From Mycolicibacterium holsaticum DSM 44478 = JCM 12374 (GTDB taxonomy: Bacteria > Actinomycetota > Actinomycetes > Mycobacteriales > Mycobacteriaceae): DNA of 64,000 nt. The position numbers and the translations under genes were made by a program. Below, piece after piece: positions 4 through 10,421 of the stretch (positions within the stretch are counted from its first letter, which is position 1; every line of letters starts with the position of its first letter). The notes beneath the pieces were generated by a model. It was given only the letters and a program-made list of their open reading frames with translations. It did not search any database and was not told the origin of the DNA. Location of the stretch: the NCBI RefSeq assembly GCF_019645835.1, contig NZ_CP080998.1, forward strand, positions 558,001 to 622,000, written 5' to 3'.

Positions 4-981
4 CTATCCGGGATAGGCCTCTCCCGCCTGCCGACGGGCGACCCACGCCGACCGCACCATCTCCTCCAGCGAGTGCCGCATCTGCCAGTCGAGGTCGCGG
101 CCGGCCAGGTCCTTGGACGCGACGATGCGGGCCGGATCACCGGGCCGGCGCGGCCCGACGGTCGGTTCGAAGTCCACGCCGGTCACCTCCCGGATCGCGG
201 TCATGATCTCGCGCACCGAGGTGCCGTTTCCGCTGCCGAGGTTGTACACGGCCTCGACCGGTGCACCGGCGTCCAACCGCTGGGCCGCGGCGACATGCGC
301 TGCCGCCAGATCCGATACGTGGACATAGTCACGCACGCAGGTGCCGTCCGGGGTGGGGTAGTCGTTCCCGTTGATCCGCGGTGTCTCCCCGCGGTAGAGC
401 ATGTCGAACACGACGGGGAACAGGTTGTGCGGGCTGACGTCGAACAACTCCGGCGCACCGGATCCCACCACGTTGAAGTAACGCAGGCTGGTGTGCCGCA
501 GCTCGGTGGCGTGTGCGACGTCACGCAAGATCCATTCGCCGACCAGTTTGCTTACCCCGTACGGGGATTCAGGCGTGGTCGGCGTCTGCTCGGTGACCGT
601 GTCGACGTCAGGGGTGCCGTAGGTCGCGGCGCTGGACGAGAACACCAACTTGTCGGTGCCCACCGACGTCATCGCCTTGAGCAGGTTGACCATCGCCGTG
701 ACGTTCTGCTCGTAGGTGTGCAACGGTTCGCGTACCGAAACGCCCGCGTATTTGAACCCCGCGATATGGATGACGCCGGTGACCCGGTGCTCGCGCAGCG
801 TCTGGGTGATGAGTTCGGTGTCGAGCAAGGTGCCGCGCACCAACGGCACGCCCGGCGGGACGAACGCTTCCAGCCCGGTCGACAGATCGTCGAGCACCAC
901 CACCGGCAGGTCGGCGTCGCGCAGCGCACGCACTACGTGCGAGCCGATGTACCCGGCCCCGCCGGTCACCAGCCAAGTCAT
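4..981 (-). CDS. galE: UDP-glucose 4-epimerase GalE
   Basis: A 325-residue extended short-chain dehydrogenase/reductase. It has the N-terminal NAD-binding motif TGGAGYIGS directly after the start and the catalytic YGVSK (Tyr-x3-Lys) mid-protein. The family interconverts UDP-glucose and UDP-galactose in the cytosol, supplying galactose for mycobacterial arabinogalactan. The ATG at 981 is preceded by a GAGGGAGAG ribosome-binding site; a longer in-frame reading that runs back through the upstream genes is spurious. It lies 71 bp downstream of the flippase gene on the same strand, so it probably ends the operon that starts at 7560. Order and identity match M. tuberculosis galE1 (Rv3634c). The specificity is inferred from family and synteny. 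Confidence 0.93.
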   Translation of the reverse strand: MTWLVTGGAGYIGSHVVRALRDADLPVVVLDDLSTGLEAFVPPGVPLVRGTLLDTELITQTLREHRVTGVIHIAGFKYAGVSVREPLHTYEQNVTAMVNLLKAMTSVGTDKLVFSSSAATYGTPDVDTVTEQTPTTPESPYGVSKLVGEWILRDVAHATELRHTSLRYFNVVGSGAPELFDVSPHNLFPVVFDMLYRGETPRINGNDYPTPDGTCVRDYVHVSDLAAAHVAAAQRLDAGAPVEAVYNLGSGNGTSVREIMTAIREVTGVDFEPTVGPRRPGDPARIVASKDLAGRDLDWQMRHSLEEMVRSAWVARRQAGEAYPG

Positions 982-1052
982 CTGCTCTCCCTCGCCGTCG
1001 TTTGAAGTGGCACCTTCGGCAGCATAGGTGCGCCCGCCGCCGGCCCGCGTCG

Positions 1053-2294
1053 TCACCGGGGGCTCTTGGCCAGCGCGGCCATGTGCACGGCGATGCCCAC
1101 CAGCGGACCGCACAGCAGCGCGATCACCGTGCGGGTCTCCAGGGGTAGCGGAAGCAGCAGCAACAGCGTTGATGCGACCGTCGCCGACACCCAGCCCAGC
1201 GAATAGGCCCGGTGCAGGGCCGCCGCGACCGCCGCCGCGCCGGTCAACGTCAACAACGCGATCGCCACCGCCGCCCCGGTCAGCCAGGCCAGCAGCGCGC
1301 CGCCGGCCAGGTATTCGGGGCCGAACGCGGTGCGCAACAACCACGGCCCGAACACGCCGGCGGCCAGCACCCCGGCCAACCCGACACCGGTCACCACCGC
1401 CGCCGGGGCCGCCAGCGCCCGCAACCGTTCGGTGCGCTGGTCGACGAAGTGCGCGATCAGGTTGCCCTGCATCGCGGTCAGCGGGACCAGGAGCGGGGCC
1501 CGAGTCAGCGTCACCGCCAGGATCACCACACCGCCGGCCGCGCCCAGCTCGCCGGTGGTGGCCTTGAGCAGCACGGGGAAGCCCATCACCAGCACCGCGC
1601 TGGCCCCGGCCGCGGCGATCGAATGTGCCGCACCGCGCAGAAACGTCGCGGTGCCGCCCGGTGTCAGCAGCCCGGCGGCCTCGCGGGTCGACGGTGAAAC
1701 GATCAGCATGATCAGCCACGCCACCGCACCGGCCACGGTGGCCCACAGGTAGCCGACCAAGCCCCACCCGACGACGAACGTCACCGCGGCCACGATCACC
1801 CGCAGCCCGGCGTCGGTCACCATCAGCGCCCCGTAGGGCGTCCACCGGTTCAGCCCGGCCATCATGCCCAGCAACGTGGCGTGCAGGCAGAACCCGGCCA
1901 GCCCGACGGCCAGCAGCGCGGCGCTGAGCCAGCGCGACGCCACGAACACCTGCGCCGACCACAGCGGCGAGGTGGCGATGATCAGCCCGGCGGCGACCAC
2001 GCCGACCATGGCGGCCACCTTCGCCGGATGGGTGCGCGGGCCTTCGGCGACCTCGACGTAACCGGCCGAGCGCACCTCCCTGGTGGCCTCCTGCAGCAGA
2101 CCGAACGCCGCGCCGGTGACCAAACCGAACGCCCCCCAGAAGACGCCGAACACCGCGAACCCCGTCGGCTCCAGATCGCGGGCGGCCAGGTACAGCACCG
2201 CGTACCCACATAGCGCCGACGCCGCGGTGGCCGCACCCACCCGCGCCACGCTGCCCCGCGTGACCGGGCCGGAGGGCGTGCCGGCGTCGGTCAC
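1053..2294 (-). CDS. Wzx/MATE-like polysaccharide flippase, multispanning membrane protein
   Basis: A 413-residue, very hydrophobic protein with about 12 predicted membrane helices, interrupted by short Arg-rich loops, as in the MOP (Wzx/MATE) exporter superfamily. Members flip lipid-linked glycans or other amphiphiles across the inner membrane. The GTG start at 2294 overlaps the stop of the aminopeptidase gene in a GTGA, so translation is probably coupled; the longer reading to 2435 is antisense-like sequence inside that gene. M. tuberculosis has a membrane protein (Rv3630) near galE1 that may be the counterpart. The substrate is unknown. Its position downstream of a Pls-like synthetase suggests it could export that enzyme's product, which is inference. 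Confidence 0.75.
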   Translation of the reverse strand: MTDAGTPSGPVTRGSVARVGAATAASALCGYAVLYLAARDLEPTGFAVFGVFWGAFGLVTGAAFGLLQEATREVRSAGYVEVAEGPRTHPAKVAAMVGVVAAGLIIATSPLWSAQVFVASRWLSAALLAVGLAGFCLHATLLGMMAGLNRWTPYGALMVTDAGLRVIVAAVTFVVGWGLVGYLWATVAGAVAWLIMLIVSPSTREAAGLLTPGGTATFLRGAAHSIAAAGASAVLVMGFPVLLKATTGELGAAGGVVILAVTLTRAPLLVPLTAMQGNLIAHFVDQRTERLRALAAPAAVVTGVGLAGVLAAGVFGPWLLRTAFGPEYLAGGALLAWLTGAAVAIALLTLTGAAAVAAALHRAYSLGWVSATVASTLLLLLPLPLETRTVIALLCGPLVGIAVHMAALAKSPR

Positions 2295-3622
2295 GGCGGC
2301 GGTTCCAGCGCGGGCAGTGCCCGCGCGTACAGCCAGGCCTCGAACAGCGCGCGCAGCGACTGGTCGGCGTAGTGCGAGGCCAGCCCGGTGAAGTCGTCGG
2401 TGACCACCGTGCTGTGCCGGTAGCGCTGAGTCCAATCCCGAAGCAGTGCAAAGAAATTGTCGTCACCGATGCGGCCCCGCAACACGTGCAGGGTGAGCGC
2501 GCCGCGTTTGTACACGCGGTCGTCGAACAGGTCCTGGACTCCTGGATCGGCCAGCAGCAGGTCCTGGGGCGCGTCGGCAAGCCGCTGATGGTAGTGCCGC
2601 GCCCACTCCTCGGCGCTGCGGCCGCCGGAGTTCTCCGACCACAGCCACTCGGCGTAGCAGGCGAAACCCTCGTGCAGCCAGATGTCTTGCCAGCGCCTGA
2701 CGGTGACCGAGTTGCCGAACCACTGATGGGCCAGCTCGTGGGCGATCAGCCGTTCCCCCCGGCCGCGGCCCGCGCAATGATTGGCGCCGAAGATCGAAAT
2801 ACCTTGTGCCTCAAGCGGTATCTCGAGGTCGTCATCGGTGATCACGACCGTGTACCCGTCGGCGAGTGGATAGGGGCCGAACAGTTCGACGAACAGCGTC
2901 ATCATCTGCGGTTGCCGGGCGAAGTCGGATGCGAAGTTCTCGCTCAGCCGGTCGGGCAGCACCGCGTGGATCGACACGCCGTTTCTGGCCACCCGATGCC
3001 GGTCGTACCTGCCGATCTGCAACGTCGCCAGATACGTCGACGTCGGCTCCGGCTGTTCGTAGGTCCACGTGGTCATCCCGGCGTGCGCGCGCCGGGAGAT
3101 CAGCCTGCCGTTGGCGATCGCGTAGTAGGAACGTTCCGTGCGGATTCGGATGTGGATGCTGGCCTTGGCGCTGGGCTGGTCGTCGCACGGAAACCACGAT
3201 GGGGCCCCGTTGGGCTGACCCGCCACCAGCGCACCGTCGGTGAGCTCCTCGAATCCCACGTCGCCCCAATGGGTTCGGATCGGTCGCGGGCTGCCGCCGT
3301 AGCGTACGACGATCGTCATCGCCGCACCGGCGGGCAGGCCCTCCGCCAGCGTGATGTGCAGCTTGTTCGCCGAGGTCTTGAACCTGCCCGCACGCGCGCC
3401 GTTGACGGCCACTTTCGTCACCGACAGCGCATCGGAGAGGTCGAGGGTCAACGTGCGCAGCGCCGCCAGCGTCACCGCGGTGATGGTGGCGGTCCCCGAC
3501 AGCCGGTTTGTCGCGACCTTGTATTCCAGGTCGAGTTCGTAGCGCGAGACCCGGTAGCCGGAATTACCGTTGTCGGGCAGATAGGGATCGATGATCCGCG
3601 TCGAGTTCTCGCCGCCCGTCAC
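2291..3622 (-). CDS. M1-family zinc aminopeptidase, short form
   Basis: 443 residues. The gluzincin signature is complete: HELAH at residues 295-299 and the third zinc ligand Glu318 in the following helix (WLHEGFACYAEW). A Tyr near residue 383 (VYKRGA) fits the transition-state tyrosine. The exopeptidase loop reads PLEAQG (269-274) instead of the usual GAMEN; this variant occurs in some short bacterial M1 enzymes. The N-terminal half is the beta-rich M1 domain. The helical C-terminal domain of full-length PepN is absent, so the protein is half the length of mycobacterial PepN. No signal peptide is visible. Its start overlaps the synthetase stop by 4 bp (ATGA), and its stop overlaps the flippase start. 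Substrate not known. Confidence 0.88.
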   Translation of the reverse strand: MTGGENSTRIIDPYLPDNGNSGYRVSRYELDLEYKVATNRLSGTATITAVTLAALRTLTLDLSDALSVTKVAVNGARAGRFKTSANKLHITLAEGLPAGAAMTIVVRYGGSPRPIRTHWGDVGFEELTDGALVAGQPNGAPSWFPCDDQPSAKASIHIRIRTERSYYAIANGRLISRRAHAGMTTWTYEQPEPTSTYLATLQIGRYDRHRVARNGVSIHAVLPDRLSENFASDFARQPQMMTLFVELFGPYPLADGYTVVITDDDLEIPLEAQGISIFGANHCAGRGRGERLIAHELAHQWFGNSVTVRRWQDIWLHEGFACYAEWLWSENSGGRSAEEWARHYHQRLADAPQDLLLADPGVQDLFDDRVYKRGALTLHVLRGRIGDDNFFALLRDWTQRYRHSTVVTDDFTGLASHYADQSLRALFEAWLYARALPALEPPP

Positions 3623-6600
3623 GCTGCAGCGTCTTCTGGTTTCTTGGACTTACCCCTCGATTTGTTGGCGCGCTTCTTACCCAACCCATTCCACGGTGCG
3701 ATCGGATTGCCCAGCCACCGTGTCGCGGCTGGCACCTGGTCGCCGCGCATGACCAGCGAGGCCGGTCCGACGGTGGCGCCCGCCCCGATGCGCGATGCGG
3801 GCAGCGCGACGCAGTGCGGTCCCAGCGTCGAACCTTCCTCGAGCACAACGGTGTCCATCGCCATGATCCGGTCCTGGAACAGGTGGGTCTGCACCACGCA
3901 GCCCCGGTTTACGGTCGCACCGCGGTCGATTGTCACCAGGTCGGCCTCCGGTAACCAGTACGTTTCACACCACACGCCGCGCCCGATCGTCGCGCCCAGC
4001 GCCCGCAGCCACCAGTTCATCACCGGCGTCCCGCTGGCCGAGCGGGCAAACCACGGCGCGGCGACGGTCTCCACGAAGGTGTCGGAGACTTCGTTGCGCC
4101 ACACGAACGACGACCACAGCGGATGCTCGCCGGTGCGGATCCGTCCGACCACAGCCCATTTCGCGACGACGGCGACCGCGCCCGCCAGCGCGCCGGCCGC
4201 CAGCAACAGCACGCCGCTGCCCAGCGCCGCCCACAGCCAACCGAATTCGGTCGCCAGCCACTGCAGCCCGAACAGCACCCCGACACCGATCGCGAACGTC
4301 ACGACCACCGGCACGATCCGGCAGGCTTCGACCATCGCGCGCAACGTCTTCAGCCGCAGCGGCGGATCGAACGTGCGCTGCGTGTCGGCGGCGGTGGGCT
4401 TGCGGCGCAGCCGAACCGGCGGGCTGCCCAGCCACGACGAGCCGGCCTTGGCCTTGTGCGGTGCTGCGGACAACACCGCGACCAGGCCGTCGTCGGGCAC
4501 CTTGCGTCCCGGTTGGGCGATCCCGGAGTTGCCGAGAAACGCGCGCTTGCCGATCGTCGCCTTGGCCACGTGCAGCCAGCCGCCGCCCAGTTCGTAGGAG
4601 GCCACCATGGTGTCGTCGGCCAGGAACGCGCCGTCCTCGATCACCGTGAACGTCGGCGTCAACAGCACCGTGGAAATCTCGGTGCCCCGACCGACTTTCG
4701 CGCCGAGCGCACGTAGCCACCACGGTGTCAGCAGGCTGGCGTAGATCGGGAAAAGGTAGGTGCGCGCGGCGTCCATGAGCCGCTCGATGGCCCAGATCTG
4801 CCAGCCGACGCGGCTGCGTACGGGGTGATAGCCGTCGCGCAACCCCACCGACAGCACCCGCACACCGATCAGGGTCAGCAGCGCATAGCTGAGCAACGCG
4901 ACCAGCGTCGCCACCGGAGCCCACCGCAGCGTGGGTGCGATCGCCGCGGTCACCGACGCGGTATCGCGGATGGCCCAACCGATCACCGCCAGCGCGGTGC
5001 CGAGCGCCAGCAGCGGCAGCCCGCCCAACAGCACTGAGGTCACGCCGTAGACCGCGACCCAGGCGGGCGCGCGCGGCGGCCGGTGGTCGGGCCACGGATG
5101 GCGGGCCTTGCCGGACTTCGCCGCAGGCGAACCCTTCCAGTACTGGCCGTTCTTGACCTTGCCGAGCACCCCGGAACCGGGCGCCACATCGGCGTTTTTG
5201 CCGACGACGGACCCGGGCAGCAGCGTGGTGCGCGCACCGATGCTGGCGTCGTTGCCGATCGTGATCGGACCGACGTGGAAGCTATCCCCGTCGATCCAGT
5301 GCCCGGACAGGTCCACCTCGGGTTCGACCGAACTGCGGTGGCCGAGTTTGAGCATCCCGGTCACCGGTGGGGTGGAATGCAGATCGACCCCGTTGCCGAC
5401 CCGGTTGCCCAGTGCGCGCGCGTAATACACCAACCACGGTGCGCCGGCGAGGTTTTCGGCGCCGCTGGCCTGGGCCAGCCGCTCGGCCAGCCACACCCGC
5501 AGGTGCACGGGGCCGCCCCGGCGGTACGTGCCGGGTTGCAGCCCCGCCAGTAGCATCCGGGCGCCCAGCGCCGCGATGCCCATCCGCCCCAGCGGGGTGA
5601 CGAACAGCACGAAACCCGCTGCTACCCACCACCAGTCGACGGGCCGGACCCACGGCACCGCCGTGGCCGCCACGTTGTACGCGATGTTGTTCGCGATGGC
5701 CAACCACACCACCCACTGCAGCCCGGTCAGCGTCGCCAGCGGCAACGAGAGCGCCAGCTGGGCGGCCTGGGTCAGGCGCGGCATCGGTTTGACCGCCCGC
5801 GGTTCGTTCACCGGCGGCGCCTCGAGCTCGTCGAGGAACCCGGCGAGTGAGCCCAGCCGGGGACGGTCGTACAGGTCGCCGACCGTCACCTGCGGATAGC
5901 GTTGGCGCAGCGCCGACACCAGCTGCGCGGCGGCCAGCGAACCGCCGCCGAGCGCGAAGAAGTCGGCTTCGGGGCCGGTGACCGGCGCGGCCAGTACCTC
6001 CTGCCACAGCCCGGCGACCCAGGCCGCCGTGCCGGTCAGGTCCGTGGGTTCCTCGCCGGTGTCGCCGGGCGTCGGCCACGGCAGCGCGTCGCGGTCCACC
6101 TTGCCCGAGGTGCGGGTGGGCAATTCGTCGATGTGCACCAGGCGAGGGACCAGTGCGGCGGGCAGCGTCTGGGCCAGCGCCGTGCGGGCCTCGGCCAGGT
6201 CGAACGACGGATCGGCGCTGACGACGTAGCCGACCAGAACCGGTGTGCCCGCTGACGTTTGCCGCACCGCGGCCGCAGCGCCGCTGACACCGGGCAGGTT
6301 GACGAGCGCGGCGTCGACCTCGCCGAGTTCGATGCGCCGACCGCCGACCTTGACCTGGTCGTCGGCCCGGCCCACGAAGTAGAGCCCGTCGGATTCCCAC
6401 CGCACCAGATCACCGCTGCGGTAGGCCCGCGACCACGTCAGCCTGGGCATCGGCGCATACCTGTCGGCGTCCTTGTCGGGGTCCAGGTAGCGGGCCAGGC
6501 CGACCCCGCCGATCACCAGTTCGCCCACCTCGCCGTAGGGCACCGGCGCACCGTTCGCGTCGACCACCGCGAGGTCCCATCCGGCCAGCGGCAACCCGAT

Positions 6601-7560
6601 GCTCACCGGGCCGCGCCCGTCCAGCCGGGCCGCGCATGCGACGACGGTGGCTTCCGTGGGGCCGTAGGTGTTCCAGACCTCGCGGCCAGCCGAGTCGGGA
6701 CCCGCGGCGAGCCGCTCGGCCAACTCCGGCGGGCAGGCTTCACCGCCGAAGATCAGCAGTCGCACGGCTTCCAGCGCCTCGGCGGGCCACAGCGCCGCCA
6801 GCGTCGGCACCGTGGAGACCACAGTGATGTCGCGCGACACCAGCCACGGCCCCAGGTCCATGCCGCTGCGCACCAACGAGCGGGGCGCGGGCACCAGGCA
6901 GGCGCCGTGCCGCCAGGCCAGCCACATCTCCTCACACGATGCGTCGAAGCCCACCGACAGTCCGGCCAGCACCCGGTCGCCCGGGCCGATCGGGTTGTCC
7001 TGCAAAAAGAGCTGCGCCTCGGCGTCGACGAAGGCCGCCGCGCTGCGGTGCGTCACCGCAACGCCCTTGGGCGTGCCGGTGGATCCCGACGTGAAGATGA
7101 CCCATGCGTCGTCTCGGGCCAGCGGGCGCACGGCGCGCCAACCCCGGGATGAGCCGGGTCCGCGCACCAGTCCCTGTTCGGTGATGATCGCCACCACGTC
7201 GGCCGCGGTGAACACCAACTCGGCGCGCTCGAGCGGGTCGTCGGCGTCGACCGGCACGTAGGCGGCGCCGGTGGCCAGCGTCGCGAGGATCGCCACGTAC
7301 AGCGCGTAGCTGCCCGACGGCATCCGGATGCCGATGCGGTCTCCGCGCCCGATCCCGCGGGCGGCCAGCCACTCGACGGTTTCCTCGATGTCGGCGATCA
7401 GCTCCGCATACGTCAGCTGCACCGTGCCGTCGTCGAGCGCAGGCGCATCGGGATAACGGTGCCCGGTCTCGTAGAAGATGTCGATGAGGGTGCGCGGTTC
7501 GGGTGCGTACGACGACAACGCGTACTGAGGGGGCACCTCGGAAACAAAATCCCCAGTCAC
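3619..7560 (-). CDS. Pls/PosA-type non-ribosomal peptide synthetase (A-T plus three membrane/hexapeptide modules)
   Basis: 1313 residues. The adenylation domain (about 25-495) has A2 (97-105), A3 IFTSGSTGTPKG (155-166), A5 NTYGPTE (297-303), A7 YRSGDL (380-385), A8 (398-415) and the A10 lysine (Lys487). A carrier domain follows (510-580; LGGGS, Ser541 for phosphopantetheine). There is no condensation or thioesterase domain. Residues 600-1290 hold pairs of membrane helices alternating with three left-handed beta-helix acyltransferase-like modules (about 715-815, 950-1050, 1185-1290). This architecture is that of Pls (epsilon-poly-L-lysine synthetase) and PosA. Aligning the substrate-pocket positions by hand gives D206 A207 E210 S249 I270 G272 T298 V306 V307 K487, close to codes known for lysine. 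The start is GTG with a weak ribosome-binding site. The C-terminal tail is Lys-rich. First gene of the minus-strand operon. Confidence 0.87.
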   Translation of the reverse strand: MTGDFVSEVPPQYALSSYAPEPRTLIDIFYETGHRYPDAPALDDGTVQLTYAELIADIEETVEWLAARGIGRGDRIGIRMPSGSYALYVAILATLATGAAYVPVDADDPLERAELVFTAADVVAIITEQGLVRGPGSSRGWRAVRPLARDDAWVIFTSGSTGTPKGVAVTHRSAAAFVDAEAQLFLQDNPIGPGDRVLAGLSVGFDASCEEMWLAWRHGACLVPAPRSLVRSGMDLGPWLVSRDITVVSTVPTLAALWPAEALEAVRLLIFGGEACPPELAERLAAGPDSAGREVWNTYGPTEATVVACAARLDGRGPVSIGLPLAGWDLAVVDANGAPVPYGEVGELVIGGVGLARYLDPDKDADRYAPMPRLTWSRAYRSGDLVRWESDGLYFVGRADDQVKVGGRRIELGEVDAALVNLPGVSGAAAAVRQTSAGTPVLVGYVVSADPSFDLAEARTALAQTLPAALVPRLVHIDELPTRTSGKVDRDALPWPTPGDTGEEPTDLTGTAAWVAGLWQEVLAAPVTGPEADFFALGGGSLAAAQLVSALRQRYPQVTVGDLYDRPRLGSLAGFLDELEAPPVNEPRAVKPMPRLTQAAQLALSLPLATLTGLQWVVWLAIANNIAYNVAATAVPWVRPVDWWWVAAGFVLFVTPLGRMGIAALGARMLLAGLQPGTYRRGGPVHLRVWLAERLAQASGAENLAGAPWLVYYARALGNRVGNGVDLHSTPPVTGMLKLGHRSSVEPEVDLSGHWIDGDSFHVGPITIGNDASIGARTTLLPGSVVGKNADVAPGSGVLGKVKNGQYWKGSPAAKSGKARHPWPDHRPPRAPAWVAVYGVTSVLLGGLPLLALGTALAVIGWAIRDTASVTAAIAPTLRWAPVATLVALLSYALLTLIGVRVLSVGLRDGYHPVRSRVGWQIWAIERLMDAARTYLFPIYASLLTPWWLRALGAKVGRGTEISTVLLTPTFTVIEDGAFLADDTMVASYELGGGWLHVAKATIGKRAFLGNSGIAQPGRKVPDDGLVAVLSAAPHKAKAGSSWLGSPPVRLRRKPTAADTQRTFDPPLRLKTLRAMVEACRIVPVVVTFAIGVGVLFGLQWLATEFGWLWAALGSGVLLLAAGALAGAVAVVAKWAVVGRIRTGEHPLWSSFVWRNEVSDTFVETVAAPWFARSASGTPVMNWWLRALGATIGRGVWCETYWLPEADLVTIDRGATVNRGCVVQTHLFQDRIMAMDTVVLEEGSTLGPHCVALPASRIGAGATVGPASLVMRGDQVPAATRWLGNPIAPWNGLGKKRANKSRGKSKKPEDAAA

Positions 7561-7740
7561 GCCTACAAAGTACTAAGCCGACCCGGCCGTGCCCCCGCGC
7601 CGCACGCGGTGGCTGATCACAATTGCGACAACGACGGTGGCTGGGGCCGCGTCGGCGCACCGGCCTGCGGTGTAACCGCAGGTTCGACGGGTATCCCCGG
7701 GTTGGGATTTCGCGTCGGGCGACGGACTGGCAGACTCGTC
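7561..7740. promoter_or_regulatory. Divergent intergenic region: NRPS promoter (minus) and terC leader promoter (plus)
   Basis: 180 bp between the synthetase start and the riboswitch aptamer. On the minus strand a TA-rich stretch (TAGTAC) lies about 10-16 bases before the GTG start, so the synthetase transcript may have a very short leader. The plus-strand promoter for the riboswitch-terC transcript must lie here, but no clear -35/-10 pair could be singled out. Nothing else was recognised. Confidence 0.35.
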
Positions 7741-7851
7741 GCCGGAGGGGAGTATTCCTTCGCCGCGGTATCGTCATCACGTTGGCCGTCATCGGACGAC
7801 CGGTGCCGCGGGCCGACACGACGGTTCGTGGCGGTGGAAGAGACCTCCGGC
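7741..7851 (+). promoter_or_regulatory. yybP-ykoY (Mn2+) riboswitch upstream of terC
   Basis: The aptamer is closed by a perfect 8-bp P1 helix: GCCGGAGG at 7741-7748 pairs with CCTCCGGC at 7844-7851. The 5' strand runs straight into the family's conserved GGGGAGTA (7747-7754), and the second conserved internal-loop block (GCCGACA, 7812-7818) lies on the 3' side, as in the Mn2+-sensing yybP-ykoY class. The 3' strand of P1 can instead pair with the terC Shine-Dalgarno (CCGGAGG, 7862-7868), giving a translational off-state. High Mn2+ should stabilise P1 and free the ribosome-binding site. The class assignment rests on conserved blocks and gene context, not on a covariance search. Confidence 0.83.
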
Positions 7852-7870
7852 GCTTTGACGACCGGAGGTT
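7843..7870 (+). promoter_or_regulatory. Shine-Dalgarno-sequestering hairpin (riboswitch expression platform)
   Basis: ACCTCCGG (7843-7850) is perfectly complementary to CCGGAGGT (7862-7869), leaving an 11-nt loop. The right arm contains the GGAGG that serves the terC GTG start at 7874. The left arm is the same strand that closes the Mn riboswitch P1 helix, so the two pairings exclude each other. There is no U-tract, so control should be of translation initiation rather than termination. Confidence 0.75.
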
Positions 7871-7873
7871 CTG

Positions 7874-8899
7874 GTGAACGTAAGCGGGCTCGAGTGGGCC
7901 ATCACGCTGAGCGTGACGATCGCCGTTCTGCTGTTCGACGTGATCGTCATCGGCCGGCGCCCGCACGAACCGACCAAGCGTGAGACCGGGACGTACCTGT
8001 CGATCTACATCGGGCTCGCGGTGGCGTTCGGGCTGTGGACCTGGTTCTTCCACGGCAGCCAGTACGGGCTGGAGTTCTTCGCCGGCTGGCTCACCGAATA
8101 CAGCCTGTCCGTGGACAACCTGTTCATCTTCTTGATCATCATGGCCAGCTTCAAGGTGCCCAGGATCTACCAGCAGCAGGCCCTGCTCGTCGGGATCATC
8201 CTGGCGCTGGTCTTCCGCGGCATCTTCATCGCGCTCGGCGCCGTCGCGATCAACCAATTCTCCTGGGTCTTCTACATTTTCGGTGCGTTCCTGCTCTACA
8301 CCGCGGTGGGGCTGGTACGCGACACCGAGCACGACGACGACGCCGAGAACCGGGTGGTGCGCTTCGCCCGCAAGCACATGAAATTCACCGACACCTGGGA
8401 TGGCCTGCGGCTGTGGGTGCGCGAGAACGGCACGCGGGTGATGACGCCGATGTTCCTCGTCATCGTCGCGTTGGGCACCACCGACCTCATCTTCGCGCTG
8501 GACTCGATTCCGGCCATCTACGGTCTGACCCAGGAGCCCTACCTGGTGTTCACCGCGAACGTGTTCGCGCTGATGGGCCTGCGGCAGCTCTACTTCCTGC
8601 TCGGGGACCTGCTCAAACGGCTCATCTACCTGTCGCAGGGGCTGGCGTTCATCCTCGCGTTCATCGGCGTGAAGTTGGTGCTGCATGCGCTGCACGAGAA
8701 CGAGGTGCCGTTCATCAACGGCGGCGAGCATGTTCCGGTACCGGAGATCCCCACCCTGGTCAGCCTCGGGGTGATCGTGGTGACGTTGATCGTCACCACG
8801 GTGGCCAGCCTGTACAAGACCGGGGTGCGCGGCGCGAAGGAGCGGGGCACGTCCGACGTTGCCCCCGACGAGCCCGAGCCGCATCCGCGCAAGGGTTAG
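7874..8899 (+). CDS. TerC-family integral membrane protein, probable manganese exporter
   Basis: 341 residues with about nine predicted membrane helices. Both acidic signature segments of the TerC family are present: SLSVDNLF in an early helix and DLIFALDSIPA in the middle; these carry the buried Asp residues thought to bind metal. Bacterial TerC proteins such as Alx, MeeF and MeeY export Mn2+ and help metallate secreted enzymes. The GTG at 7874 is chosen because GGAGG lies 5-9 bases upstream. The gene is preceded by a Mn-type yybP-ykoY riboswitch that can hide that site, which supports a manganese role over the old tellurite name. A hairpin overlaps the stop codon. The C-terminal tail is hydrophilic and Pro/Glu-rich. 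Confidence 0.9.
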   Translation: MNVSGLEWAITLSVTIAVLLFDVIVIGRRPHEPTKRETGTYLSIYIGLAVAFGLWTWFFHGSQYGLEFFAGWLTEYSLSVDNLFIFLIIMASFKVPRIYQQQALLVGIILALVFRGIFIALGAVAINQFSWVFYIFGAFLLYTAVGLVRDTEHDDDAENRVVRFARKHMKFTDTWDGLRLWVRENGTRVMTPMFLVIVALGTTDLIFALDSIPAIYGLTQEPYLVFTANVFALMGLRQLYFLLGDLLKRLIYLSQGLAFILAFIGVKLVLHALHENEVPFINGGEHVPVPEIPTLVSLGVIVVTLIVTTVASLYKTGVRGAKERGTSDVAPDEPEPHPRKG

Positions 8900-8922
8900 C
8901 TGCAACTAGATAGTTCAGCTAA
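8896..8922 (+). terminator. Hairpin overlapping the terC stop, possible terminator
   Basis: TTAGCTG (8896-8902) pairs with CAGCTAA (8916-8922), and inside it AACT (8904-8907) pairs with AGTT (8912-8915) around an AGAT loop, an 11-bp stem with one bulged C. The stem includes the terC stop codon. It is followed by A-rich rather than U-rich sequence, so it is not a classical intrinsic terminator on the plus strand; it may protect the 3' end. Confidence 0.4.
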
Positions 8923-9137
8923 AAACCCTGTTGGGTGCCTTGATTCTGGGCACGAAATATAACTGCGAATTCGGTTTGCGGAAGACCGTTGTTCGGCGGC
9001 GCTCGTCGGTGAAATAGCGGTTCGCGAATTTCGCGGCGTTGGTCTTACCATGGCGACGGTTAGCTGTCTGGATGACCTTCGAAGAAAGTGGGACCTTTCG
9101 TGCGTGACGCCACTTCCGGCACCGGCCGTCGATCGCG

Positions 9138-10421
9138 ATGACGACCGAGGCGGCGAAAGACAGCGCGGCGCCACGGACACCCTCAAGCCCAACCGAGGAC
9201 CGAAAGCACAAGCGGGCACGGATAATCGGCCTCGACGGCATCCGCGGACTGCTGTGCCTGAGCATCGCCATCACCCATGTCACCGGGTACTACACGAAGA
9301 ACACCGCCGACACCTGGAAGACCAATTTGTTCGGCTTCTCGCTGGTGTATTTTTTCGTCCTCAGCGGTTTTCTGTTGTTTTTGCCGTACGTGCGAAACCT
9401 GGTAACCGCCGGCGCGTCGACCCGCATGCCGGACGTCCGCGATTACGCGGTACACCGTCTCGCGCGAATCATGCCGGCATACCTCGTGATTTTCTTGATC
9501 GTCAATTTTGTCCTGCGCCTGTCCTATATCGACAACGCGGCCTTGATGCCCGATGACGCGCGCACGGGCATCGGCATGATCACCGATCCGCTGGAGTTGC
9601 TGGCCAACCTGGCGTTGGTGCAGACCTATTTCCCGGCCTACATCCAGACCGGGATCGGACCGTCGTGGTCGCTGACCCTGGAGTACGCGTTCTACCTGAC
9701 GCTTCCGGCGCTGGGCTGGCTGATCTTTCGGATGCGCCGCCACAGCAGGCGCAACCCGTACCTGGTGGCCGTGGTCGCGCCCGCCGTTCTGCTGGGCATC
9801 GGGTTGCTCGGTCGCGCGCTGACCCCCCTGGTGAACCGCTACGGGGGCACCTCCGACTTCATCCTGCTCAACTGGGGTCCCAACATCGCCGCGGTGTTCA
9901 CCCGCAGCATCCTGACCAACGCCGACAACTTCGCGATGGGCATGTTCGCGGCCGTCGTGTTCGTCGCGATCGAGCACGGCGTGCTCTCCGAGCGCGCGGG
10001 CCGGCGCATCCGGACGCTCAGCGCCGCCGCGATACTTCCCGTGCTGGTGGTGGGCGCCTTGATGTTCGCGGTCGCGGTGTCGTTCGTCACCGCGGTGGTC
10101 GGCGTGGTCGCTGCGCTGATGATCCTCGTCGTCGTCGTGCCGTTGGCCCGAGGCCAGCGGTCCAAGCTGGCGCGCGCCCTCGACATCCGCCCGATCCGCT
10201 ACGTCGGCGAGATCTCGCTGTCGGCGTATCTGTGGCATTTCCCGGTGTTGCTGTTACTCGGCCGGCTCGGCTGGATGGCCGGCGACACGTTGCCGGGCAT
10301 GCTCTACAACATCGCGGTTCTGCTCGCCGTGACGATTCTCGCCGCGAGTGTGACCTACTACCTCGTGGAAAAGCCGGCGATGACCTACGCCAGAGCCAAA
10401 ACCGCGCGAGCGGCCAGTTGA
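9138..10421 (+). CDS. Acyltransferase family 3 (OafA-like) membrane protein
   Basis: 427 residues with about ten predicted membrane helices. It begins with the family signature GLDGIRGLLCL followed by a His in ITHVTGYY, the conserved N-terminal His of acyltransferase-3 proteins that O-acylate surface glycans or lipids. The ATG at 9138 is the first possible in-frame start after a stop near 9104 and lacks a clear ribosome-binding site. The N-terminal 28 residues are charged and cytoplasmic. It stands alone between terC and the convergent YhgE/Pip gene. The upstream 240 bp is AT-richer than its surroundings and contains a CGCGAA-T-TTCGCG palindrome (9023-9035) that could be an operator. The acyl donor and acceptor cannot be told from sequence. 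Confidence 0.85.
   Translation: MTTEAAKDSAAPRTPSSPTEDRKHKRARIIGLDGIRGLLCLSIAITHVTGYYTKNTADTWKTNLFGFSLVYFFVLSGFLLFLPYVRNLVTAGASTRMPDVRDYAVHRLARIMPAYLVIFLIVNFVLRLSYIDNAALMPDDARTGIGMITDPLELLANLALVQTYFPAYIQTGIGPSWSLTLEYAFYLTLPALGWLIFRMRRHSRRNPYLVAVVAPAVLLGIGLLGRALTPLVNRYGGTSDFILLNWGPNIAAVFTRSILTNADNFAMGMFAAVVFVAIEHGVLSERAGRRIRTLSAAAILPVLVVGALMFAVAVSFVTAVVGVVAALMILVVVVPLARGQRSKLARALDIRPIRYVGEISLSAYLWHFPVLLLLGRLGWMAGDTLPGMLYNIAVLLAVTILAASVTYYLVEKPAMTYARAKTARAAS

What the first reader, a model, noticed from the sequence alone, without database searches (positions are those of the whole stretch)
1053..7560. Coupled operon of a Pls/PosA-like synthetase, a short M1 aminopeptidase and a flippase
Three minus-strand genes are chained by ATGA and GTGA overlaps, so they should be made in fixed proportion. 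The first is a stand-alone A-T synthetase whose C-terminal half has three hexapeptide-helix modules set between membrane helices and no thioesterase, the design of enzymes that polymerise basic amino acids by isopeptide bonds. An aminopeptidase and a polysaccharide-type flippase co-translated with it suggest a route in which an amino acid polymer or amino-acid-decorated lipid/glycan is made at the membrane, trimmed and flipped. galE follows on the same strand. I know of no described mycobacterial product for such a set.
Basis: partly seen in the sequence, partly recalled or inferred. Interest (0 to 1): 0.82.

Follow-up and report, generated by a model that had tools for sequence, protein, structure and literature searches.

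The report
Mycobacterial polylysine operon with a flippase
This mycobacterium carries a known kind of gene pair that should make and break down the antimicrobial polymer epsilon-poly-L-lysine, joined to a membrane flippase gene that is widespread in mycobacteria and may serve cell-wall sugar decoration instead.

Summary
Three minus-strand genes (window 7560 to 1053) are chained by two 4-base GTGA overlaps.

Genes 1 and 2 are a known kind. [quoted passage not shown] Gene 2 is an M1 peptidase like PldII, whose gene is coupled to pls in Streptomyces albulus. Three searches of an open-access library listed no paper on a mycobacterial Pls.

The flippase is the new part. In 118 Mycobacterium genomes pls and pld occur in the same 83; the flippase occurs in 115 and lies directly behind pld in 62 of the 83. 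PpgS lies directly behind the flippase in 79 of 87 PpgS genomes. Of 29 flippase genomes without PpgS and DUF2304, 28 keep it behind pls-pld; the other has no pls. Gene order makes it the likely orthologue of M. tuberculosis Rv3630 and a candidate for the unidentified flippase of polyprenyl-phosphate-GalNAc.

Core (epsilon-PL made, peptidase protects): about 0.85. What the flippase carries is open: a lipid-linked sugar is most likely (about 0.5), epsilon-PL itself about 0.25.

The parts
3619..7560 (-). pls: epsilon-poly-L-lysine synthetase, A-T-[TM pair + beta-helix]x3, 1313 aa
   Evidence: TIGR02353 742.8 bits (cut-off 423.1) over residues 600-1287; PF00501, PF00550; 7wew A domain E 1e-184; code DAESIGTVV; AF2 of C-terminal half
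2291..3622 (-). pld: short M1 metallopeptidase, PldII-like, HELAH at residue 295 and second motif HEGFA at 317, 443 aa, no hydrophobic stretch found
   Evidence: PF01433, PF17900; solved relative 6a8z; motifs and hydropathy scan; 42% identical to the M1 gene overlapping a Streptomyces pls
1053..2294 (-). flip: Wzx-type MOP flippase, 413 aa, start GTG at 2294; likely Rv3630 orthologue by gene order
3619..3622 (-). GTGA overlap pls stop / pld start
   Evidence: sequence; NTGA overlap kept in 76 of 108 loci
2291..2294 (-). GTGA overlap pld stop / flip start
   Evidence: sequence; NTGA overlap kept in 39 of 47 loci
4..1005 (-). galE (UDP-glucose 4-epimerase), same strand; stands where relatives have ppgS-DUF2304
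   Evidence: TIGR01179 328.5 bits, cut-off 262.3; downstream of flip in 26 of 27 further PpgS-less genomes
7874..8899 (+). terC/alx-type membrane protein, divergent neighbour; directly beside flip in 3 of 6 pls-less loci looked at
   Evidence: TIGR03718 374.7 bits

Best explanation
pls and pld are an epsilon-poly-L-lysine synthesis/self-protection pair. Pls loads L-lysine as the AMP ester onto its carrier Ser; its membrane-embedded triple beta-helix domain joins the lysines by alpha-carboxyl/epsilon-amino bonds to an antimicrobial polycation; the M1 peptidase made in fixed ratio degrades epsilon-PL that reaches the cell. The third gene is a Wzx-type flippase that has stood behind pls-pld probably since before Mycobacterium split from its closest relatives. 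It most likely flips a polyprenyl-phosphate sugar for wall decoration (with PpgS and DUF2304 in the probably ancestral operon; with galE and a conserved membrane protein downstream here), co-expressed with, but not chemically part of, polylysine synthesis. Shown here: gene anatomy, start/stop overlaps, lysine code, co-occurrence, gene order across relatives. Inferred: product, peptidase substrate, flippase substrate, ancestral order.
Against: 28 of 118 genomes, the window's included, keep flip behind pls-pld without PpgS and without DUF2304, with dN/dS 0.06-0.24 in ten pairs. This argues for a role of the flippase that does not need PpgS. The Z gap between WzxE and MATE is modest, and PMC8562490 (passages) annotates Rv3630 as a putative MATE-like drug antiporter. 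No product has been shown in any mycobacterium that I found, and C. variabile itself made no detectable epsilon-PL in culture (PMC8117764). The M1 gene has no hydrophobic stretch in the scan, while PldII is reported outside the membrane (PMC9223678). terC was not found near the flippase in 3 of 6 pls-less loci.
Confidence: 0.6

Rival explanations
1. The flippase is the exporter of epsilon-PL (or of a short lysine oligomer) and a true third member of the polylysine system.
For: NTGA overlap with pld in 39 of 47 loci; behind pld in 62 of 83 pls carriers; kept behind pls-pld in all 28 pls carriers without PpgS and DUF2304, a label that changes at least 6 times on the flippase tree (gains or losses); also behind pls-pld in Williamsia, Speluncibacter and Dietzia loci.
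Against: 20 pls carriers have the flippase elsewhere, all with PpgS (for one, G008, a contig end hides the neighbour); 32 genomes keep it without pls. In an order-wide sample of 150 genomes 46 have Pls, but flippase matches of 48% identity or more occur only in the window's genus and one other genome; 11 more match at 28-32%. So Pls does not need it in general.
Confidence: 0.25
2. Polylysine and the lipid-linked sugar are parts of one pathway: lysine oligomers and/or GalN are put on a wall glycan, a joint polycationic decoration built by the set pls-pld-flip-ppgS-DUF2304.
For: That five-gene order occurs in 18 of 80 named loci, with flanking genes varying, including Speluncibacter and Williamsia; a genome with pls elsewhere still has pld-flip-ppgS-DUF2304 (L269).
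Against: Flip was not found next to pls-pld in 20 of 83 carriers of the genus that have it, and it was not found in the Nocardia and Rhodococcus loci; no enzyme that would join lysine to sugar is visible.
Confidence: 0.12
3. The three genes are only neighbours held together by inheritance, with no shared function.
For: Mycobacterial pls is one clade, so the adjacency could be one old event; pls and flip lie apart without loss of either in about 20 genomes.
Against: Start/stop overlaps kept across the genus and retention of flip exactly there where PpgS is missing.
Confidence: 0.15
4. The synthetase polymerises another diamino acid (ornithine, diaminobutyrate, diaminopropionate).
For: The family holds such enzymes (PMC10522769, passages).
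Against: Pocket position 2 is Ala as in Pls; it is Met in PosA and Phe in the PDAP enzyme (PMC10522769); full code equal to 7wew as read.
Confidence: 0.06

Closest known systems
pls-pldII operon of Streptomyces albulus and Corynebacterium variabile (epsilon-poly-L-lysine)
   Same: Same synthetase architecture, same pocket code as the solved Pls A domain, peptidase gene directly behind; coupling is stated for S. albulus (PMC9223678, PMC8117764, passages).
   Different: A Wzx-type flippase is coupled behind the peptidase here; divergent terC upstream; galE downstream.
PosA, delta-poly-L-ornithine synthetase of Acinetobacter baumannii
   Same: A-T plus a terminal domain of six helices and three left-handed beta-helices (PMC10522769).
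   Different: PosA is a single-gene operon with Met at the pocket position that is Ala here (PMC10522769).
M. tuberculosis Rv3629c-Rv3634c region (Rv3630 transporter, PpgS Rv3631, Rv3632, galE1)
   Same: Same gene order flip-ppgS-DUF2304-galE1 in pls-less mycobacteria of the survey, with terC beside flip in 3 of 6 looked at.
   Different: The window genome has pls-pld in front of flip and lacks PpgS and DUF2304. Orthology with Rv3630 rests on gene order; its sequence was not fetched, and absence of pls from M. tuberculosis is recalled, not tested.
Lipid III flippase WzxE and other MOP flippases
   Different: 15% identity; no Pfam family at E up to 1; substrate unknown.

Membership tests
epsilon-poly-L-lysine synthetase (Pls) | A and T domains followed by the NRPS terminal domain, no thioesterase | tested here: met
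   TIGR02353 742.8 bits, cut-off 423.1; PF00501, PF00550, no thioesterase hit
epsilon-poly-L-lysine synthetase (Pls) | Lysine pocket code (Ala at position 2, Glu at position 3) | tested here: met
   DAESIGTVV, same residues read in 7wew; GrsA position numbers recalled
epsilon-poly-L-lysine synthetase (Pls) | Three pairs of TM helices alternating with three beta-helices | tested here: met
epsilon-poly-L-lysine synthetase (Pls) | Makes epsilon-PL | not testable with these tools
   needs expression and mass spectrometry
PldII-type epsilon-PL-degrading M1 peptidase | M1 fold with HExxH-x18-E, gene directly behind pls | tested here: met
   motifs; pls and pld in the same 83 of 118 genomes
PldII-type epsilon-PL-degrading M1 peptidase | Cleaves epsilon-PL; located outside the membrane | not testable with these tools
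   no hydrophobic stretch found; no assay
Wzx/MOP lipid-linked glycan flippase | MOP superfamily fold | tested here: met
Wzx/MOP lipid-linked glycan flippase | Match to Pfam Polysacc_synt PF01943 | tested here: not met
   no Pfam family at E up to 1 for the window protein; 10.9 bits (cut-off 28.2) for a Williamsia relative
Wzx/MOP lipid-linked glycan flippase | Flips a polyprenyl-linked substrate | not testable with these tools
   needs assay
Rv3630 orthologue | terC-flip-ppgS-DUF2304-galE1 gene order in relatives | tested here: met
   PpgS directly behind flip in 79 of 87; DUF2304 and galE1 in loci; terC beside flip in only 3 of 6 pls-less loci; locus names from PMC6487176, PMC5389812 and PMC9671496 passages; terC = Rv3629c recalled
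Rv3630 orthologue | Sequence similarity to Rv3630 | not tested
   sequence not fetched
GalN (PpgS) decoration pathway in the window genome | PpgS and DUF2304 partner present | tested here: not met
   no PpgS at E 1e-40; no DUF2304 at E 0.001

The most novel reading that the evidence does not exclude
In mycobacteria the polylysine operon is part of envelope building: the flippase behind pls-pld moves polylysine or a lysine-bearing lipid-linked sugar, and the M. tuberculosis GalN-arabinogalactan genes Rv3630-Rv3632 are the remnant of an ancestral five-gene polycation operon (pls-pld-flip-ppgS-DUF2304) from which the polylysine pair was moved away and often lost.
Probability: 0.17. Interest if true: 0.85.

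Novelty: new variant of a known kind. Interest (0 to 1): 0.52.

Why it matters
It predicts that 83 of 118 sampled Mycobacterium genomes can make epsilon-poly-L-lysine, an antimicrobial polymer; three library searches (listings) showed no paper about that. It also puts a specific flippase gene next to PpgS. The flippase of polyprenyl-phosphate-GalNAc is stated to be unidentified (PMC9671496, passage), so a simple gene-removal test in harmless species becomes possible. Natural genomes without PpgS but with the flippase, and without pls but with the flippase, are a ready-made comparison for asking what it carries.

Tried and rejected
A new polymer class: rejected, the A-domain code equals that of the solved Pls. 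M1 peptidase as a trimming enzyme of a new route: set behind the published PldII pair. Flippase as a gene restricted to pls carriers: rejected, 115 of 118 genomes. Riboswitch or other known RNA in window 7300-9200 (pls/terC gap): no Rfam match at E up to 1. Structure papers on Pls: none in the library holding all six terms. Comparison with S. albulus PldII itself: its sequence was not fetched; a Streptomyces plasmid pair (L237) was used instead. Rv3635 and Rv3779 search: listing only, nothing on the flippase seen.

Full report
What is there. On the minus strand lie a 1313-aa, a 443-aa and a membrane-protein gene, the last ending at window position 1053. The listed 460-aa frame of the third gene begins inside the second; the coupled GTG at 2294 gives 413 aa. 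galE follows on the same strand; terC runs the other way on the upstream side.

Gene 2. It matches Peptidase_M1 and its N-terminal domain, has HELAH at 295 and the second motif at 317, and is closest among solved structures to a 474-residue zinc metalloprotease, 6a8z. In S. albulus pldII is described as translationally coupled to pls, and its repression lowers tolerance to epsilon-PL (PMC9223678, passages; the papers differ on exo- or endo-cleavage). [quoted passage not shown] coelicolor, although C. variabile itself made none detectable (PMC8117764, passages). A Streptomyces plasmid shows a 4-base overlap of pls and an M1 gene; its proteins are 54% and 42% identical to the window's. So genes 1 and 2 are a new instance of a known pair.

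Survey of the genus. In 118 genomes drawn from the genus, Pls occurs in 83 (in G044, G045 and G070 only partial or split matches), pld in the same 83, flip in 115 (in G086, G112 and G115 only fragments; the query was the 460-aa frame), PpgS at E 1e-40 in 87 (the query protein is over the NF058614 equivalog cut-off). Flip is directly downstream of pld on the same strand in 62 of 83, farther on the same contig in 14, on another contig in 6, not found in 1. Of the 6, G008 has pld at a contig end, so its neighbour cannot be judged; 62 is a lower bound. Cross table: pls with adjacent flip, PpgS absent 28, PpgS present 34; pls with non-adjacent flip 20, all with PpgS; pls and PpgS without flip 1; flip and PpgS without pls 32; flip alone 1 (G072); none of the three 2 (G005 and G052, 84% and 87% complete). 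PpgS lies within 200 bases behind flip on the same strand in 79 of 87 PpgS genomes, 1-3 kb behind in 6, not judged in 2; in the pls-less ones 31 of 32. DUF2304 is absent in all 28 of the first group and in G072, present in 3 of 3 comparison genomes. Flip pairs in the first group have dN/dS 0.06-0.24 (10 pairs), others 0.05-0.16 (7 pairs), so the gene is under selection although perhaps somewhat more loosely.

Gene order. Among 80 named loci the order pls-pld-flip-ppgS-DUF2304 is found in 18, including Speluncibacter L089 and Williamsia L080; two more (L108 and the Dietzia locus L117) have pls-pld-flip-ppgS. The window type terC / pls-pld-flip-galE is found in 7, and flip with none of the downstream genes, or with only the other galE, in 3. 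Forty-one loci show only pls-pld among the genes sought, many of them Nocardia and Rhodococcus, some Mycobacterium; a few of these contigs end close by. Of six pls-less loci looked at, flip stands directly beside terC in three and no terC was found in the other three; it is also beside terC in two with pls elsewhere. In the two pls-less loci read gene by gene flip is followed by PpgS and DUF2304 and by a second type of galE. This fits the reported set Rv3630-Rv3634c (PMC6487176, PMC5389812, PMC9671496, passages; terC as Rv3629c is recalled). Orthology with Rv3630 is therefore by position; the sequence was not compared. Of 27 further PpgS-less genomes 26 have the window-type galE behind flip, 21 directly and 5 about 2.5-3 kb on, and one has only the other galE. 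Beyond galE a membrane protein is shared (77% identity over 572 residues) between the window genome and a pls-less one.

History. In a tree of 109 flippases (105 of 115 mycobacterial ones, 4 outgroups) all 44 non-adjacent copies used fall into one group, support 86, i.e. not starred; the label 'adjacent, no PpgS' needs 9 changes, at least 6 forced by starred branches; these may be gains or losses. The outgroup branches are long and their placing is unsure. The Pls tree (82 of 87 loci given) puts all mycobacterial Pls used in one starred group, with relocated copies in two groups. So adjacency is probably ancestral, PpgS was probably lost several times, and pls-pld was moved away once or twice.

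Wider order. In 150 genomes of the order Pls is in 46, PpgS in 28 (13 over the cut-off), and flip matches in 26: 14 in the genus (73-100% identity), one of the same family (G194, 48%), and 11 at 28-32%. By the coordinates none of the 28-32% matches lies near a Pls. G194 keeps pld-flip-PpgS-DUF2304 together and has pls on another contig. In another family (G133, L268) PpgS lies head to head with a 28% identical flippase; in a third (G222, L271) the 32% match is about 7 kb from PpgS. The other PpgS loci of this sample were not looked at. Pls in general does not need this flippase.

Mechanism. Epsilon-PL synthesis plus peptidase protection is the committed reading for genes 1 and 2 (about 0.85). 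For gene 3 a lipid-linked sugar is favoured (about 0.5): fold, PpgS directly behind it in most PpgS genomes and present in 52 of 53 genomes where flip was not found next to pls-pld, GalE and a conserved membrane protein downstream here. Against this stands its retention behind pls-pld where PpgS and DUF2304 are missing (28 of 29 such genomes with flip; the exception, G072, has no pls); hence export of epsilon-PL (0.25) or a joint decoration (0.12) stay open. PMC9671496 (passage) states that the flippase of polyprenyl-phosphate-GalNAc is unidentified; this family is a candidate.

Literature. Searches listed no paper that by title and abstract reports a mycobacterial Pls (listings only). In PMC8117764 'mycobacter' does not occur; in PMC10522769 'Mycobacterium' occurs once, in the reference list. 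The library holds only open-licence papers, so this is not proof of absence.

Noticed in passing
L236 (M. avium plasmid pMAH135), 7902-11882: A plasmid-borne Pls, 71% identical, with the same lysine code but no M1 peptidase annotated within 8 kb (PLSDB gene table is incomplete), between NRPS, cysteine-synthase-like and PE/PPE genes; beside Mycolicibacter Pls in the tree.
   Followed up: partly
L269/L270 (genome G194): pld-flip-ppgS-DUF2304 stay together while pls lies on another contig with no pld found in the stretch.
   Followed up: partly
genome G220: Three Pls copies (64, 56 and 52% identical to the window's) in one genome.
   Followed up: no
L118:8536-11705: Left of the window, beyond galE and a membrane protein, two genes with EspA-like ESX-associated TPR matches, the larger also EspA/EspE family.
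   Followed up: no
L246, L248, L255, L257, L262: Between flip and the next galE a TetR-like regulator and an amidohydrolase-like gene on the other strand in five PpgS-less genomes (names from the look of the sequences, not searched).
   Followed up: no
L067: Contig titled Bifidobacterium breve MAG, but its Pls and gene order lie inside Mycobacterium: probably a wrong label or bin.
   Followed up: no
genome G115, C1:278470-278973: Flippase only as a 52% identical fragment with three stops, next to an open PpgS: looks like a decayed copy.
   Followed up: no
window 9138-10421: Acyltransferase_3 membrane protein with weak partial similarity to SucT (26.9 bits, cut-off 1275).
   Followed up: no
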